Below the pieces are notes generated by a model. The model had not been told where the DNA came from. It saw only the letters and a program-made list of their open reading frames with translations, and made no database searches. Positions 324 through 32,195 of a DNA stretch of 32,303 nt are shown here, piece after piece. A program made the translations under genes and the position numbers. How positions within the stretch are numbered: position 1 is the stretch's first letter; every line of letters starts with the position of its first letter. This stretch comes from Anaerolineae bacterium. Its GTDB lineage: Bacteria > Chloroflexota > Anaerolineae > Promineifilales > Promineifilaceae. The stretch spans positions 1-32,303 of the forward strand of contig JANTHP010000012.1 of assembly GCA_024762395.1 (NCBI GenBank), read 5' to 3'.

Positions 324-1271
324 ATGAACGATAAAGTAGCCGTCATTGCAATTGGCGGCAATTCATTAATTCAAGATAAAGCGCACAAAAGTGTGCAAGA
401 CCAGTATGACGCGGCGAATGCTACAACAAAGCATATCGCCAAAATGATTAAGCAGGGCTGGAATGTAGCTATTGCGCATGGCAATGGGCCGCAAGTTGGC
501 TTTATTTTGCGGCGGTCGGAATTAGCGGCAAATGAACTGCATGAGGTTCCACTGGATGTGTGTGGTGCGGATACGCAAGGGGCAATTGGTTATGCCTTGC
601 AGCAGACGCTTTACAATCATTTTCAGGATATGGGTATTGATAAAGAGGTGACAACTGTCGTCACCCAGGTTGAGGTGGGCGCCGACGATCCGGCTTTTCA
701 AAATCCGACAAAGCCGATTGGTTCGTTTATGGACGAGGCGCAGGCAATGTCTCGCCGCGACAATGATGGCTGGGATGTGGTAGAAGACGCCGGACGCGGT
801 TGGCGCCGTGTAGTGGCTTCGCCGCTGCCAAAACGGATTGTTGAAGAAACGGCCGTCAAACATCTCATCTCGGCTGGCATCAGTGTCATCACCGTAGGCG
901 GCGGCGGTATCCCCGTTGTGGCTGAAAACGGCAAGCTCAAAGGCGTGCCGGCCGTGATTGACAAGGATTTCGCATCGGCCCTGTTAGCGAACCGGATTGG
1001 CGCGGATTTATTCGTCATCAGTACGGCCGTTGAGAAAGTCGCCCTCAACTTCGGCAAACCCAACGAACAGTGGCTGGATAAAATGAGTCTGGCCGAAGCC
1101 AAAGCGTATCTGGCCGAAGGCATCCACTTTGCCAAAGGCAGCATGGCCCCCAAAATCCAGGCCGCCATCAACTTCCTGGAGCGCGGTGGAACCCATGTCA
1201 TCATCACCGACCCGCAGAACATCGAACGGGCGCTGAACGGCGAAACAGGAACGCATATTGTAGTCGAATAG
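324..1271 (+). CDS. arcC: Carbamate kinase
   Basis: ATG at 324 preceded by GGAGG; MNDKVAVIAIGGNSLIQD..., AHGNGPQVG, VITVGGGGIPV, VIDKDFASALLA are carbamate kinase signatures. Confidence 0.93.
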   Translation: MNDKVAVIAIGGNSLIQDKAHKSVQDQYDAANATTKHIAKMIKQGWNVAIAHGNGPQVGFILRRSELAANELHEVPLDVCGADTQGAIGYALQQTLYNHFQDMGIDKEVTTVVTQVEVGADDPAFQNPTKPIGSFMDEAQAMSRRDNDGWDVVEDAGRGWRRVVASPLPKRIVEETAVKHLISAGISVITVGGGGIPVVAENGKLKGVPAVIDKDFASALLANRIGADLFVISTAVEKVALNFGKPNEQWLDKMSLAEAKAYLAEGIHFAKGSMAPKIQAAINFLERGGTHVIITDPQNIERALNGETGTHIVVE

Positions 1272-1350
1272 TCAGGTAGTCGGGTAGTCGGGTAGTCCGA
1301 CTACCCGGCCACATGACTACCAGACTGCGTAACTACAGGACTACACAACT
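1260..1350. repeat. GTAGTCGG octad array followed by its reverse-complement array (inverted array)
   Basis: gtagtcga-atagtcag-gtagtcgg-gtagtcgg-gtagtc then cgactaccc...gactacc...aactacaggactac; the first unit contains the arcC stop codon. Confidence 0.75.
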
Positions 1351-5695: not shown

Positions 5696-7405
5696 TCAAT
5701 CATCGTCCGGACTGTCACCATTGGCGTGACAAGCGACGCAGTTATGGGAATAGTTACTTACTTCGTCATGTTCTGCATCCTCTTCGGCATAGTTATGACA
5801 GGCTGTACAAGTGTAACTGGCCGTATCGCCGCCAGGATGGCAGGTGGCGCAATCGCCATTTGCTCCTTCGTGGTTAAGTGGAAATGTGTGATCAAATGAA
5901 GCGCCATCCCATGTATCGGTGTTGTGGCAATCGGAACATTGACCGGCGAAGTGGTTAGACGGCCGTGCATGGCAAGACTGACAATCTGTTAACCCATTAT
6001 GGCTAAAGTTCACATTATGGAAATTGCCCGTGTCAACATGACAGGCACTGCATGCACCGCCGTAGTGATTGGCCGGGGGCGTATGACAAGCCGAACAATC
6101 CGTGCCGCCAATGGTGGCGTGGTTGAAGGTGGCATTGCTAAAGTTGCTGGTATCGCTGTGACAAGCAGTGCATGCGCCGCCGTAATGATTGGCCGGAGGT
6201 GCATGACAAGCCGAACAATCCGTGCCGCCGATGGTGGCGTGGTTAAAGGTGGCATTGCTAAAGTTGCTGGTATCGCTGTGGCAGGCAGTGCATGCGCCGC
6301 TGTAATGGCCTGCCGGCGCTGTGTGACAGGCTGCGCAATCCGTGCCGCCGATAGTGGCATGGTTAAAAGTGGCGTTACGGAAGTTGCTGGTATCGCTGTG
6401 GCAGGCGCTGCAAGCGCCGCTGTAATGGCCTGCCGGCGCTGTGTGGCAGGCTGCGCAATCTGTGCCGCCGATGGTAGCGTGGTTAAAAGTAGCATTGGCG
6501 AAGTTTTCGGTGTCGGAATGGCAGGCGCGGCATTCGCCATCATAATGGTTGGCTGGCGGCGTGTGGCAAGCCGCACAGTCGTTATCGCCGATGAAGCTGT
6601 GGTCGTAGTTGACGTCTTGCCACCCGCTGATATTATGACAAGTGGCGCAGTCGGCGCCATAAAGGCCATTGTGGGAATCATCCTGGGTGTGACAAGTAAT
6701 ACAGGCTGTATCTGTCCCCTGATATGAGCCGCCGCTGTGGCAAGTTTCGCAACTTATCTCGGCATGACCACCGCTCAACGGGAAAAAGCTGTGATCAACG
6801 GAACCTTCAGGAAAGGGAACCATGCGGGAATCCGCCAGGCTGTTGGTTCCGGAGGCTGTGGAAACAGTTGAATTGTCTGCAACAATCGGCCGTTCGTTTT
6901 CCGGGGCAATGGCGCTGATGGCGGCAGTGGGGTTGGGAGCGGTTAAGGCTAACTGAATGGATTGGGATTTGGCGATAAAAGCGAGTACGGCCGTTTCCCC
7001 TTCCCCATCTTTAATTCCATCCGCCAACGCAATCGCCCGCTCCGTTAGCGCCATCAGCCTGGCTTGCAAAGCAGGCTGTGTTTCTGCCGGCGCTGCGGTA
7101 ACGGCCGTTACCGCATGATCCAACGCCCTATCGAGGTAAGTCAAAGCAATTAACTCATGTTCTGTGCCCAGCGACGCTTCTAAATCATCCAGGCGGCGTT
7201 CCAATAAATTAAGAAAAACCGCAGCCCGCTCAGCCGCGTCAACGTTAAAAGCCAATCCCCACTGCTGCTCTGACCATAATTGAGCCGGAAACAACCAACT
7301 TCCCGGCAAAAACGGGGCTTTCCCAGCCATGACGTAGGTTGCAGTCCCGCCAACAACGCCAACAAACAACAACAAAGCGAATGAAATCAAAAAAAATCGT
7401 CGCAT
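5696..7405 (-). CDS. 18-heme c-type cytochrome with N-terminal DUF5667-like helical region
   Basis: Signal MRRFFLISFALLLFVGVV; 18 CXXCH motifs; 40-aa repeats NATFNHATIGGTDCAACHTAPAGHYSGACSACHSDTS. Confidence 0.87.
   Translation of the reverse strand: MRRFFLISFALLLFVGVVGGTATYVMAGKAPFLPGSWLFPAQLWSEQQWGLAFNVDAAERAAVFLNLLERRLDDLEASLGTEHELIALTYLDRALDHAVTAVTAAPAETQPALQARLMALTERAIALADGIKDGEGETAVLAFIAKSQSIQLALTAPNPTAAISAIAPENERPIVADNSTVSTASGTNSLADSRMVPFPEGSVDHSFFPLSGGHAEISCETCHSGGSYQGTDTACITCHTQDDSHNGLYGADCATCHNISGWQDVNYDHSFIGDNDCAACHTPPANHYDGECRACHSDTENFANATFNHATIGGTDCAACHTAPAGHYSGACSACHSDTSNFRNATFNHATIGGTDCAACHTAPAGHYSGACTACHSDTSNFSNATFNHATIGGTDCSACHAPPANHYGGACTACHSDTSNFSNATFNHATIGGTDCSACHTPPANHYGGACSACHVDTGNFHNVNFSHNGLTDCQSCHARPSNHFAGQCSDCHNTDTWDGASFDHTFPLNHEGANGDCATCHPGGDTASYTCTACHNYAEEDAEHDEVSNYSHNCVACHANGDSPDDD
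6060..6600 (-). repeat. In-frame 120-bp (40-aa) tandem repeats within the cytochrome CDS
   Basis: Near-identical sequence recurs every 120 bp (alternate 60-bp lines), ~4-5 copies. Confidence 0.9.
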
Positions 7406-8815: not shown

Positions 8816-8877
8816 GGAAGATTGAAGATTGGAGACTGGTGATTTGAACCAATCTCTAATCTCTAATCTCCAGTTCC
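8816..8877. repeat. Heptad inverted array (GATTGGAGACTGGTGATT / AATCTCTAATCTCTAATCTCCAGTT)
   Basis: Read directly; encodes the C-terminus and stop of the ferredoxin CDS. Confidence 0.75.
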
Positions 8878-26007: not shown

Positions 26008-29000
26008 GTGAATAAATCCCGCTTCCAAACCATTTGGCATCTATTTCTCATTGCCCTCTTTGGTTTGCCGCTGGTGTCGCCGCTGCTGCGGATGACGGCC
26101 GTTCCCTGCACCCACGACGGCCATCTCCACTACCACCGCATCGCCGCCATGCGCTACGCCTGGGAGAACGGCCTCCATTTCACCCGCTGGCTGCCCGATT
26201 TAGCCTTCGGCTACGGCTACCCCTTCTTCGTCTACCGCGAACCAATCCCGCTTTACGCCGCCTTCTTCCCCCATTTGCTGGGCCTGCCGCTGCCCGCCGC
26301 CGAAAACCTCATCTACATTTTGGCGATTTTGGCCGGGGGCTGGTTCATGTATTTGTGGGTGCGCGATATTTTGGGGGCACGGGCGGGGCTGGTGTCGGCC
26401 GTCGCCTACATGGCCGCCCCCTACATTTTGATTGATGCCCTCATTCGCGGCAATTCCCCCGAATCGGTAGCCCTGCCCCTGTTTCCGCTGCTGCTTTGGC
26501 TGGGGCGGCGCTGGCTGCTAACCGGCACAGCCCGTTATTTCCTGCTTGCCGTTTTCAGCCTGGCCTTCCTCTCCCTCAGCCACAACATTTCCCTGCTGCT
26601 GTTTACGCCCACATTGGGCGTTTACCTGCTGCTCGTTGGCTGGCTGCATAAGCTGGATTGGCGGCAGATTGCGGGGCGGTTGGCGCTGCTCTTTGGTCTG
26701 GGGCTGGGGATGACGGCCTTTTATTCCGGCGGCGCGCTGCTGGAAATGGATCAGGTAACGCTGCAACAATCCACGACTACGCGCAACAATGATTTTCATT
26801 ACAATTTTGCCAGCCTGGGCGAAATTTTTGCCCCCGTCGCGTCCGAAGACCCCACGCTGCTCAATCCACCGCTGAAATTTCGGATAGGCTGGGTTCCGGC
26901 AGTGTTGGCAGTTTTGGGATTGGCGTTGTGGAGGAAAAAGGAGGCTGGAGATTTGAGATTTGAGACTAACGATCTTCCTCCAGGCTCAAATCTTCAATCT
27001 CCAATCTCTAATCGGGAACAACGCTGGCACATCATTATGATGGCGGCGGCAACGGCCGTTTTCCTCCTCCTCGCCCTGCCCATCACCCTACCCATCTGGG
27101 AAAATGTGCCGCTGATAGATTTTCTCCAATTCCCCTGGCGTATGGTGGGGCGGGCCGCGCTGCCAATAGCGTTTTTGGCAGGTGTACCCTTCGCAAGCGG
27201 CGCATGGCGCGCGCCAGGCAGCCAAAGGCTGCCTGGCAAGTATTCACGTTTCACGTTTCACGCATCACGTTTCACGTTTTACGCCGCTCTCACCCTCCTC
27301 ATCCTCGAAGCCATCCCCATGCTCTACCCGACTGCCTGCAAAGAAGACCCTTTTCCGACAATCCGGACGGTTCACACTTACGAACATGTGACGGGGCTGG
27401 TGGGCGTTGACCCGGAGGGCAGTTATTTCCCCAAAACGGTGGCGCGTCGTCCCAAAGAATCGGTTTTGGAGGCAGATTATCAGGCGGGGCGCACGCCGCA
27501 GCGGTTTGATGAAGCGGCTTTGCCGGATGGGGCGGTGACGATGGCTGAAGAGTACGGCCGTCTTTCCGCCACCATCCATCTCACCACTCCCGCGCCTTTC
27601 ACCGCCCGCTATTTCAGCTTTGCTTTTCCCGGCTGGACAGTTGAGGTAGACGGCCGTTCCATCCCCATCACTCCCAGCAGCCCCGACGGACTCATCACGT
27701 TCCCCGTTCCGGCCGGCGAACACAGCATCGTCGTCCGTTGGCGCTCCACCCCGCTGCGGACGGCCCTGTTGGGGTTTAGCATAATGGCGATGGCGGGCGT
27801 ATTGGTAACGGCCGTTATTCTGGCAGAAAAACAAGGCCGCAGCAATGCCAACGGGTCACACATCACACATCCCTTCGACAATGCCCAGGGCAGGCGCGCA
27901 GCACGCTTGAACCTTCCAGCCTTGTTCGCCCTCGGCTTGCTCCTGCTCGCCGGTAAGTTTTTCATTGTGGATCGCGTAGAAACGCCGCTGCGCCGGGCCG
28001 AAACGCCATCTGTCGCCCATCCTGCCGCCCTGCAAGCCGCCGAACTGCGCTTTGATGGCTACAATTTGAGCCAGACCACCGTCCCATCCGGCGCAACCTT
28101 TGATATTGACATGGCCTGGACGGCCGTCTCTCCCCCCACCGCCGACTACCAATCCAATATCTGGCTGGCCGGGCCGGACGGGCTGGTTTGGAGCGAAAAA
28201 GGGACCGAACGCCCTCGTCTCTATGAAGATGCGCCGCCTACCCGCCAGTGGCTGCCCGGCCAATGGGCCTGGGACAGCCGGGAGGTACGGGTATTTGACG
28301 GGACGCCGCCCGGCCAATATGACATTGTTCTGGTTTTGTTCGACAAGGCAACGCTCCAACCGTTGACACTGCTGGATGAGAATGGGGCAGCGGTGGGGCC
28401 AACGGCCGTTATCGGCCAAATAACCGTCACCCGCCCCGACCAACCGGCCCAATTTACCCCTCAATTCCCACTGGAAACGGCCGTTGCCGACCTCACACTC
28501 CTCGGTTACAACCAGGACCGGGCCGAAGCCGCCCCCGGCGACCCCGTTTTACTCACCCTCTTTTGGGAAAAGCCGCCGCCCCCACCCGGCGTTTCTTCTA
28601 TTTTCCAACTCAGATTGCTTAACGAAGAAAACGTCATGGTACAAATCTGGTCAATCAACCCGGTCAACGCCGACTATCCGCCCAGCGATTGGCAGCCCGG
28701 CGAACATCTGCGCGGTCAACACGTCCTGCGCCTGCCCGCCTATTTGGACAGCGGCAAGTATCAGTTCGATTTGAATGGGGTCCCACTCGGTGAAATAACC
28801 ATCCACGCCCCCGACCGCCTATTTGAACAGCCCCCCATCGAAAATACCGTTAACGTCTCCTTCCACAATGCTGACGGCATCCACCTGGCCACACTCATCG
28901 GCTACAACCGACAGCCAGCAGCCAACAACCAACAACCAATCACCCTTCTCTGGCAAGCTGCCGCTGAAACCCCCATCAGCTATCGCGTCTTCGTTCATCT

Positions 29001-29232
29001 AGTGGATGAAACCGGCGGGATAATTGCCCAAAGCGATGGCGAACCGGCCAATTGGACGCGCCCCACCACCGGCTGGGCCATTGGCGAATACATCCTCGAC
29101 CCCCACACCCTCACCCCCGCCCCACTCCCCAACGGCCCGCTCACCCTGCACGTCGGCCTCTACGACCCAACTACCGGACAGCGCTTACATACCCCCGCCG
29201 CCGATTTTGCTGAACTCATCATTTCAGATTAG
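26008..29232 (+). CDS. Large multi-TM membrane protein (6-pyruvoyl-tetrahydropterin-synthase-related/YfhO-like glycosyltransferase type)
   Basis: GTG start; many TM helices; HDGHLHYHRIAAMRYAWENGLHFTRWLPDLAFGYGYPFF; C-terminal beta-rich modules. Confidence 0.7.
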   Translation: MNKSRFQTIWHLFLIALFGLPLVSPLLRMTAVPCTHDGHLHYHRIAAMRYAWENGLHFTRWLPDLAFGYGYPFFVYREPIPLYAAFFPHLLGLPLPAAENLIYILAILAGGWFMYLWVRDILGARAGLVSAVAYMAAPYILIDALIRGNSPESVALPLFPLLLWLGRRWLLTGTARYFLLAVFSLAFLSLSHNISLLLFTPTLGVYLLLVGWLHKLDWRQIAGRLALLFGLGLGMTAFYSGGALLEMDQVTLQQSTTTRNNDFHYNFASLGEIFAPVASEDPTLLNPPLKFRIGWVPAVLAVLGLALWRKKEAGDLRFETNDLPPGSNLQSPISNREQRWHIIMMAAATAVFLLLALPITLPIWENVPLIDFLQFPWRMVGRAALPIAFLAGVPFASGAWRAPGSQRLPGKYSRFTFHASRFTFYAALTLLILEAIPMLYPTACKEDPFPTIRTVHTYEHVTGLVGVDPEGSYFPKTVARRPKESVLEADYQAGRTPQRFDEAALPDGAVTMAEEYGRLSATIHLTTPAPFTARYFSFAFPGWTVEVDGRSIPITPSSPDGLITFPVPAGEHSIVVRWRSTPLRTALLGFSIMAMAGVLVTAVILAEKQGRSNANGSHITHPFDNAQGRRAARLNLPALFALGLLLLAGKFFIVDRVETPLRRAETPSVAHPAALQAAELRFDGYNLSQTTVPSGATFDIDMAWTAVSPPTADYQSNIWLAGPDGLVWSEKGTERPRLYEDAPPTRQWLPGQWAWDSREVRVFDGTPPGQYDIVLVLFDKATLQPLTLLDENGAAVGPTAVIGQITVTRPDQPAQFTPQFPLETAVADLTLLGYNQDRAEAAPGDPVLLTLFWEKPPPPPGVSSIFQLRLLNEENVMVQIWSINPVNADYPPSDWQPGEHLRGQHVLRLPAYLDSGKYQFDLNGVPLGEITIHAPDRLFEQPPIENTVNVSFHNADGIHLATLIGYNRQPAANNQQPITLLWQAAAETPISYRVFVHLVDETGGIIAQSDGEPANWTRPTTGWAIGEYILDPHTLTPAPLPNGPLTLHVGLYDPTTGQRLHTPAADFAELIISD
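26943..27013. repeat. In-CDS heptad inverted array
   Basis: ctggagatttgagatttgagac...aggctcaaatcttcaatctccaatctctaatc, encoding EAGDLRFETNDLPPGSNLQSPISN. Confidence 0.7.
27213..27283. repeat. In-CDS hairpin plus heptad array
   Basis: GCCAGGCAGCC-AAA-GGCTGCCTGGC (27213-27237), then TCACGTT-TCACGTT-TCACGCA-TCACGTT-TCACGTT. Confidence 0.8.
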
Positions 29233-29471: not shown

Positions 29472-29711
29472 ATGAAAACCATCCAAATGACCATAAACGA
29501 ATCTTTGTTGCTTCAAGTTGATGAAGTTGTAAAAGCAGAAAAGATAAATCGTTCTGCATTTATACGCGAAGCGCTGGAAGCGGCGCTGCAAAAATACAAA
29601 ATCGCCCAACTAGAAAAACAGCATCGGGAAGGATATGCACGCATTCCCCAAAAACCCGAAGAGGCAGAAATCTGGTTGACAGAGCAGGTGTGGGATGATG
29701 AGACGTGGTGA
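29472..29711 (+). CDS. Ribbon-helix-helix antitoxin (MazE/CopG-like)
   Basis: MKTIQMTINESLLLQVDEVVKAEKINRSAFIREALEAAL. Confidence 0.85.
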   Translation: MKTIQMTINESLLLQVDEVVKAEKINRSAFIREALEAALQKYKIAQLEKQHREGYARIPQKPEEAEIWLTEQVWDDETW

Positions 29712-30018
29712 AGTACGCTGGTACACATTCAAATATCCAGATAAGCGTCGCCCCGTTGTGATACTAACCCGCGATGCGGTTATAAATTACATGCACAATC
29801 TAACAATTGCCCCTGTCACAACAACGATTCGTCATACGCCATCAGAAGTCACACTCACGCAGGAGGATGGTTTGCCGCGATTGAGCGTAGTTAACCTGGA
29901 CAATATACAAACGATGCCCAAAGCAAAAATTGGCGGACTGATTACAGTATTATCGCCAAAAAAGATGAAAGAAGTCGAGAGCGCACTATGCTTCGCTTTG
30001 GGGGTTGATTGGCGCTAA
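29695..30018 (+). CDS. MazF/PemK-family toxin
   Basis: RRGEVRWYTFKYPDKRRPVVILTRD...LTIAPVTTTIR; start overlaps the antitoxin stop. Confidence 0.88.
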   Translation: MMRRGEVRWYTFKYPDKRRPVVILTRDAVINYMHNLTIAPVTTTIRHTPSEVTLTQEDGLPRLSVVNLDNIQTMPKAKIGGLITVLSPKKMKEVESALCFALGVDWR

Positions 30019-31908: not shown

Positions 31909-32195
31909 AGCGAGTTTGCGAGTGGCGAGTTTGCGAGTGGCAAGTTTGCGAGTGGCGAGTTTGCGAGTGGCAAGTTTGCAAGTGGCGAGTTTGCGAGTGG
32001 CGAGTTTGCGAGTGGCAAGTTTGCGAGTGGCGAGTTTGCGAGTGGCAAGTTTGCGAGTGGCGAGTTTGCGAGTGGATTTTCTACCCGCCACCCGCCACCT
32101 GCCACCCGCTACCCGCCACCTGCCACCCGCCACCCGCTACCCGCCACCCGCCACCCGCTACCCGCCACCTGCCACCCGCCACCCGCCACCACGTA
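31909..32195. repeat. Large compound minisatellite: (GCGAGTTTGCGAGTG)n 7+8-bp units, then (CCGCCAC/CCGCTAC/CTGCCAC)n heptads
   Basis: Periodicity read directly; about 165 bp and 115 bp arrays of partly complementary units. Confidence 0.92.

What the first reader, a model, noticed from the sequence alone, without database searches (positions are those of the whole stretch)
26943..28941. One membrane-protein gene carries four in-frame repeat insertions
The 26008-29232 CDS contains a heptad inverted array (26943-27013), a perfect 11-bp hairpin plus TCACGTT heptads (27213-27283), a TCACACA pair followed by CCCTTCGACAATGCCCAGGGCAGGCG (27855-27896), and CAGCCAG/CAACCAA heptads (28908-28941). All keep the reading frame and encode low-complexity peptides (LRFETNDLPPGSNLQSPISN, YSRFTFHASRFTFYA, HITHPFDNAQGRR, NRQPAANNQQP). 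Elements otherwise typical of intergenic space are adding peptide linkers to a protein.
Basis: partly seen in the sequence, partly recalled or inferred. Interest (0 to 1): 0.7.

Follow-up and report, generated by a model that had tools for sequence, protein, structure and literature searches.

The report
Heptad repeats repeatedly invade protein loops
In a lineage of uncultured Chloroflexota, short 7-base repeat arrays scattered through the genome also sit in frame inside conserved proteins, and the same surface loops carry arrays with different repeat units in related species, so a kind of junk DNA is repeatedly rewriting protein loops.

Summary
The 1074-aa PTPS_related/GT-C-like membrane protein (26008-29232) carries period-7 DNA arrays in frame: 4 at my threshold, against 0.002 expected when its codons are permuted. 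The units belong to a genome-wide class. TCACGTTTCACG occurs 345 times in the genome against 0 for the reversed control. Period-7 arrays run at 23 per 100 kb, four fifths of them outside genes.

The four sites are not strain-specific. In 17 orthologs, 25 of 31 period-7/8 arrays fall at these same four loops (about 11% of the protein), usually with different units. The units match each species' own genomic pool. Orthologs in array-free genomes lack them; in-gene arrays track genome-wide density (rho 0.73). The same happens at one beta-turn of shikimate dehydrogenase and one loop of diaminopimelate decarboxylase.

The best reading is a dispersed heptad-array class, often inverted, that repeatedly colonises or overwrites tolerant loops. 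It behaves like Rickettsia palindromic elements but is built like cyanobacterial heptanucleotide arrays. Net lengthening is clear at sites 1-2 only. How the arrays move is unknown.

The parts
26008..29232 (+). Host gene: 1074-aa multispanning membrane protein (PTPS_related PF10131 / PMT_2-like, GT-C-type) with a C-terminal beta-rich region
   Evidence: orthologs at 54-79% identity in the genus and family
26941..27013 (+). Site 1: inverted heptad array, purine-rich arm (TGAGATT)n, loop, pyrimidine-rich arm (AATCTCC)n; aa 312-336, loop between predicted helices 295-317 and 331-355
   Evidence: arrays at the same loop in L002, L003, L005, L012, L013
27213..27237 (+). Perfect 11-bp hairpin GCCAGGCAGCC-AAA-GGCTGCCTGGC beside site 2; unique in the genome
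27241..27284 (+). Site 2: TCACGTT/TCACGCA heptads; aa 412-425, loop between predicted helices 376-391 and 412-438
   Evidence: arrays at the same loop in L002, L007, L012, L017
27856..27871 (+). Site 3a: TCACACA pair (2.3 copies, weak alone); aa 617-622, loop between predicted helices 582-614 and 623-658
   Evidence: orthologs L002, L003, L005, L011, L017 carry clear arrays at this loop
27871..27896 (+). Site 3b: CCCTTCGACAATGCCCAGGGCAGGCG, low-copy member of a palindrome family (CCCTTCGAC N6 CAGGG) dispersed in other Anaerolineae
   Evidence: two hits allowing 2 mismatches; 3 in this genome; 38 of 120 class genomes, up to 48 copies
28904..28944 (+). Site 4: CAGCCAG/CAACCAA heptads; aa 966-979, turn between predicted strands 959-968 and 975-984
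   Evidence: arrays at the same turn in L002, L013, L017
25961..25989 (+). Intergenic heptad array (TAGTTGA)n just upstream of the host gene
8817..8874 (.). Intergenic inverted heptad array of the same unit family (GAAGATT ... AATCTCT)

Best explanation
The four segments are copies of a dispersed class of period-7 (sometimes period-8) tandem arrays, often two arms in inverted orientation with the purine-rich arm 5' and the pyrimidine-rich arm 3'. The class has multiplied in this lineage of Anaerolineae. Copies land in or overwrite sequence all over the genome and are kept mainly between genes. In coding sequence they survive where the added peptide is harmless: inter-helix loops, beta-turns and signal-peptide regions. 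A 7-base unit is coprime with the codon, so an array of three or more units reads the same in every frame and is either open in all frames or closed in all frames; the pyrimidine-rich strand is usually open. Copy number then drifts, and whole unit types are replaced from the species' own genomic pool, so orthologous loops carry different repeats. SHOWN: the genome-wide class, in-frame presence, recurrence at the same loops, match to the own-genome pool, correlation with genome load. INFERRED: that copies move by transposition or templated conversion rather than arising locally by slippage, and that they are neutral for the proteins.
For: Genome class: 78 exact period-7 runs against 1 in shuffles over 386 kb; TCACGTTTCACG 345 against 0 reversed controls; 59 intergenic, 13 gene-edge and 19 CDS arrays although about 79% of the DNA is coding. 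Recurrence: 25 of 31 ortholog arrays at the window's four loops, binomial P about 5e-19; 3-6 changes of state per site on the tree. Load: in-gene arrays against genome density, rho 0.73, P = 0.0008; G009, G017, G020, G021, G031 and G036 have no period-7 arrays in the sampled DNA and none in the gene. Pool: 12-mers of in-gene arrays average 13.3 copies/Mb in their own genome, 1.7 in other array-rich genomes, 0.12 in array-poor ones. Generality: the AroE turn VNTIVV...GYNTD holds unrelated arrays in 6 of 26 orthologs and LysA loop 333-345 in 3 of 16; both enzymes are recognised by equivalog models. Polarity: RY 48 against YR 4. No gene-orientation bias between genes (0.78/0.73/0.75 per kb). Loops.
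Against: No transposase or mobility signature was found; Y1_Tnp counts do not follow array load. Sites 3 and 4 show little or no net lengthening. The structure model is weak (mean pLDDT 58.9). Own-genome enrichment holds for only 22 of 34 arrays taken singly. The stop-codon filter on orientation is only a trend (15 of 19 open against 65 of 118, P = 0.08). The tree cannot tell gain from loss. Genome densities come from samples, some of only 12-40 kb.
Confidence: 0.7

Rival explanations
1. Local origin: loops under weak constraint generate period-7 repeats in place by polymerase slippage, with no transfer between loci.
For: Period 7 is over-represented in many bacteria and a polymerase-footprint explanation has been proposed (PMC4692102). 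Some arrays have almost no 12-mer matches elsewhere in the sampled genome (12 of 34 not above the other genomes).
Against: The same units recur at hundreds of places; inverted arms have a fixed purine-to-pyrimidine order (48 to 4); in-gene units on average follow the own-genome pool. Slippage alone makes direct, not inverted, arrays.
Confidence: 0.12
2. Ancient insertion: each loop received one array in a family ancestor, and the units have since diverged in place.
For: Three species of the genus share occupied sites; occupancy is clustered on the tree (3 changes against 6.3 in shuffles). Rickettsia RPE-4/6/7 were read this way (PMC3767692).
Against: Units within each array are homogeneous and on average match the current pool of their own genome, not one another; several changes of state are needed per site (3-6); some genomes have octads at the same loop.
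Confidence: 0.15
3. Functional module: the arrays are kept for a role (terminator, transcript hairpin, protein-binding site, or useful flexible linker).
For: The inverted array at site 1 folds strongly (z = -4.7); polarity is conserved.
Against: Equal density in convergent, divergent and co-directional gaps; units differ between species; related genomes do without them.
Confidence: 0.06
4. Ordinary variable loop sequence or an assembly artefact.
For: Loops are naturally variable; most genomes are MAGs.
Against: 4 arrays against 0.002 expected; the same pattern in independent assemblies, including a 3-contig genome, G025.
Confidence: 0.02

Closest known systems
Rickettsia palindromic elements (RPE, Ogata et al. 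2000; PMC3767692, PMC2229807) and Wolbachia WPE
   Same: Dispersed palindromic repeats found between genes and fused in frame into conserved protein genes at tolerated, solvent-exposed places; different groups at the same site in orthologs.
   Different: RPEs are 100-150 bp sequences with a family consensus; here the elements are about 20-140 bp arrays of 7- or 8-base units with many unit types. Different phylum.
Heptanucleotide stem-loops in the Nostoc tRNA-Leu intron P6b (PMC4476775)
   Same: Inverted heptad arrays in one loop; motif TDNGATT matches the site-1 unit TGAGATT; one repeat class independently replaces another at the same place.
   Different: In an RNA intron, not in protein-coding loops; two classes rather than many.
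Cyanobacterial STRR and Xanthomonas/Nostoc GGGAATC / GGGGATT heptads (PMC4692102)
   Same: Genome-wide heptad arrays, mostly intergenic, sometimes inverted.
   Different: G-rich unit; under-represented in coding regions; no recurrent occupation of protein loops in the passages read.
TAACTGA repeats of Beggiatoaceae and others (PMC4679880)
   Same: Heptad direct repeats with patchy distribution and a few in-ORF sets.
   Different: Single unit; in-ORF sets are mostly at protein ends or in hypothetical proteins; a role upstream of start codons is proposed.
REP elements with Y1_Tnp-type transposases
   Same: Short palindromic intergenic repeats; a CCCTTCGAC...CAGGG palindrome lies next to site 3.
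   Different: Heptad arrays have no REP consensus, and Y1_Tnp content does not follow array load.

Membership tests
Rickettsia palindromic elements | In-frame copies inside conserved protein genes as well as between genes | tested here: met
   arrays in AroE, LysA, a GT-C-like protein and others
Rickettsia palindromic elements | 100-150 bp sequence family with a shared consensus | tested here: not met
   Arrays 21-140 bp, many unit types
Rickettsia palindromic elements | Palindromic with terminal inverted repeats | tested here: inconclusive
   Many are inverted pairs (48 RY pairs) but many arrays are single-armed
Bacterial heptanucleotide arrays (STRR / GGGAATC type) | Tandem 7-base units dispersed through the genome | tested here: met
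Bacterial heptanucleotide arrays (STRR / GGGAATC type) | Preference for non-coding DNA | tested here: met
   72 of 91 arrays outside or at the edge of genes with about 79% coding DNA, P about 1e-32
Bacterial heptanucleotide arrays (STRR / GGGAATC type) | Known cyanobacterial or Xanthomonas unit sequences | tested here: inconclusive
   Site-1 TGAGATT fits Nostoc TDNGATT by inspection; most units (TCACGTT, CAACCAA) do not
REP elements mobilised by Y1_Tnp transposases | Transposase content goes with repeat load | tested here: not met
   PF01797 in array-poor G009 (3), G031 (7) and G048 (4) as often as in array-rich genomes
MITE | Target-site duplication and terminal inverted repeats of a parent transposon | not tested
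   No same-species empty/full site pair available

The most novel reading that the evidence does not exclude
Dispersed heptad/octad arrays form an actively moving or converting class of DNA in Anaerolineae that keeps overwriting the same protein loops with whatever unit is currently common in the genome. Loops of core enzymes would then be recurrently rewritten by selfish DNA, and each would record the repeat pool of its species.
Probability: 0.4. Interest if true: 0.8.

Novelty: new variant of a known kind. Interest (0 to 1): 0.62.

Why it matters
In-frame invasion of conserved proteins by repetitive DNA is known best from Rickettsia and Wolbachia. Here it occurs in a different phylum, with 7-base arrays of changing unit sequence instead of one element family. 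Because the same loops of AroE, LysA and a membrane protein are hit in several species, the system gives a natural map of loops that tolerate added peptide, and a way to ask whether heptad arrays move, convert or grow in place. It also warns annotators and structure predictors that species-specific peptides such as YSRFTFHASRFTFYA are repeat DNA.

Tried and rejected
REP transposase as driver: PF01797 counts do not follow array density. The GCCAGGCAGCC hairpin as a dispersed element: unique in the genome. A terminator or promoter role: no bias by gene orientation. My first density for G001 was inflated by runs of N; corrected by excluding N and cutting out the gene. A published account of heptad arrays in Chloroflexota proteins: none found in the held library; 'Satellites in the prokaryote world' lists Chloroflexus aurantiacus as satellite-rich but gives no such arrays in the passages read. 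Fold search was not run because the model is low-confidence.

Full report
THE OBSERVATION. The CDS 26008-29232 (1074 aa, GTG start) encodes a multispanning membrane protein matching PF10131 PTPS_related and, just under its cut-off, PF13231 PMT_2. It lies after an LPG_synthase_TM protein, a phosphodiesterase and a family-2 glycosyltransferase. Period-7 arrays in this CDS number 4 at my threshold (at least 12 matches in a 14-position window at lag 7), against a mean of 0.002 when its codons are permuted and 0.07 when synonymous codons are shuffled; periods 4-6 and 8-11 give none. The site-3 TCACACA pair falls under this threshold and is accepted only because the orthologs carry clear arrays at that loop.

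THE GENOME-WIDE CLASS. In 386 kb of the same genome, exact period-7 runs of at least 10 matches number 78 against 1 in a Markov shuffle, with echoes at 14, 21 and 28; period 8 (46, with echoes at 16 and 24) is the only other strong short period. One unit alone, TCACGTTTCACG, occurs 345 times in the genome, with 0 for the reversed control. Of 91 arrays in the sample, 59 are intergenic, 13 at gene edges and 19 within CDS, with about 79% of the DNA coding by my simple gene caller. Paired arms within 60 bp almost always run purine-rich then pyrimidine-rich (48 against 4 the other way, all sampled genomes). Heptads and octads can mix in one array, as in the AroE insert. The 19-mer TCACGTTTCACGTTTCACG is found in 27 of 120 genomes of the class, in patches, with up to 202 copies in one genome and 0 reversed controls.

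ORTHOLOGS. All 59 genomes searched have relatives of the protein. In the 17 closest orthologs, 25 of 31 period-7/8 arrays fall at the window's four loops, taken as the window's own limits plus 5 residues (11% of the protein; P about 5e-19). Two orthologs share a fifth loop near residue 220, and L013's off-site arrays may belong there too because its contig is cut. Units differ: at site 4 the window has CAACCAA, G001 has CCAATTA, G016 has AATCTCC and G025 has CTGCTCCC-type octads. Identity between the window protein and its same-genus relatives is 75-82% outside the sites and 25-40% inside. Orthologs in genomes without period-7 arrays in the sampled DNA (G009, G017, G020, G021, G031, G036) have none in the gene; over 17 genomes, in-gene arrays correlate with genome density (rho 0.73, P = 0.0008). 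The 12-mers of in-gene arrays average 13.3 per Mb in their own genome, 1.7 in other array-rich genomes and 0.12 in array-poor ones; the background for the same genes is 1.9. On a tree built without the loop columns, each site needs 3-6 changes of state.

LENGTH AND STRUCTURE. Against array-free orthologs the window's loop regions are 36 against a median of 19 residues (site 1), 32 against 22 (site 2), 29 against 23 (site 3) and 18 against 17 (site 4). So sites 1-2 are additions, while site 4 looks like replacement of existing loop sequence. An AlphaFold2 model (mean pLDDT 58.9, only six sequences, so weak) puts the sites between helices 295-317/331-355, 376-391/412-438 and 582-614/623-658, and between strands 959-968/975-984, with low confidence at sites 1-3.

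GENERALITY. Other G000 proteins with arrays include diaminopimelate decarboxylase, shikimate dehydrogenase, a kinase-like protein, a BTAD/AAA regulator-like protein, an FAD-linked oxidase-like protein, a second GT-C-like protein with four arrays, and three N-terminal signal regions (names other than LysA and AroE are my reading of the sequence). In AroE the array lies exactly between the two halves of the match to solved structures (2egg: query 1-76 and 93-284), at the short turn NTI-vv-DGRL-GYNTD. Six of 26 orthologs carry arrays there, of different units, and many of the rest keep a plain DGRL-type turn. In LysA, three of 16 carry different arrays in one loop.

HOW IT PROBABLY WORKS. A 7-base unit reads through all three frames, so an array of three or more units is open in every frame or in none. 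Between genes the pyrimidine-rich strand is open for 52 of 57 arrays and the purine-rich strand for 11 of 57. Arrays in CDS tend to lie with an open strand as sense (15 of 19), only a trend (P = 0.08). This property may explain why heptads can enter genes at all; that is inference. I infer that copies spread by an unknown copying or conversion process and are kept where proteins tolerate them. The lack of gene-orientation bias and the absence from related genomes argue against a needed function.

The perfect hairpin at 27213-27237 is unique in the genome. The CCCTTCGAC...CAGGG palindrome belongs to a family dispersed in other Anaerolineae (38 of 120 genomes) but has 3 copies here. The segments are not strain-specific insertions; the loops are recurrent targets.

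COMPARISON. RPEs show the same way of life (in-frame, exposed sites, different groups at or near the same site; PMC3767692, PMC2229807) but are 100-150 bp families with a consensus. The Nostoc tRNA-Leu intron P6b loop shows the same build and the same repeated replacement of one heptad class by another (PMC4476775), but in an RNA. Other heptad arrays are mostly kept out of genes (PMC4692102; PMC4679880). I found no report of such arrays in Chloroflexota proteins in the held library, which misses most subscription journals.

TAXON. The nearest named records are Anaerolineae/Chloroflexi MAGs: the same-genus relative is the contig of 7830 bases of 'Chloroflexi bacterium isolate Dive96_bin3.68'.

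VERDICT. A real, well-supported and general phenomenon; a new variant of a known kind. The movement mechanism is not shown.

Noticed in passing
sampled genomes G000, G026, G025; window 1260-1297: A second, period-8 array class (e.g. GTAGTCGG at window 1260-1297) with echoes at 16 and 24; sometimes fused to heptads in one array.
   Followed up: partly
L074 7561-8430 (AroE of G000): Core enzyme with a heptad-to-octad mixed array in its beta-turn; the same turn is occupied in five other orthologs.
   Followed up: yes
G000 C4:19606-19662, C4:20770-20823, C2:5814-5845: N-terminal regions before signal peptides or lipoprotein signals are made of heptad arrays, as if arrays near start codons were recruited as new N-termini.
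   Followed up: no
class Anaerolineae, pattern search: The same 19-mer of TCACGTT heptads is abundant in a few unrelated families (G143 202, G088 138, G138 60) and absent in most, suggesting repeated spread or horizontal transfer.
   Followed up: no
G085, G076, G111: CCCTTCGAC N6 CAGGG palindromes are numerous in some Anaerolineae (48 in G085, 27 in G076); in G111 some come in short tandem series about 24 bp apart.
   Followed up: no
window 31910-32190: Eleven copies of a 15-bp unit (GCGAGTTTGCGAGTG) followed by 15 copies of the heptad ACCCGCC: a long purine-then-pyrimidine array at the contig end.
   Followed up: no
window 29473-30018: A PemK/MazF-like toxin gene (29695-30018, PF02452) preceded by a short reading frame that looks like its antitoxin, next to the host gene.
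   Followed up: no
window 6039-6497: 3.8 copies of a 120-bp repeat (40 codons) within a long open reading frame.
   Followed up: no
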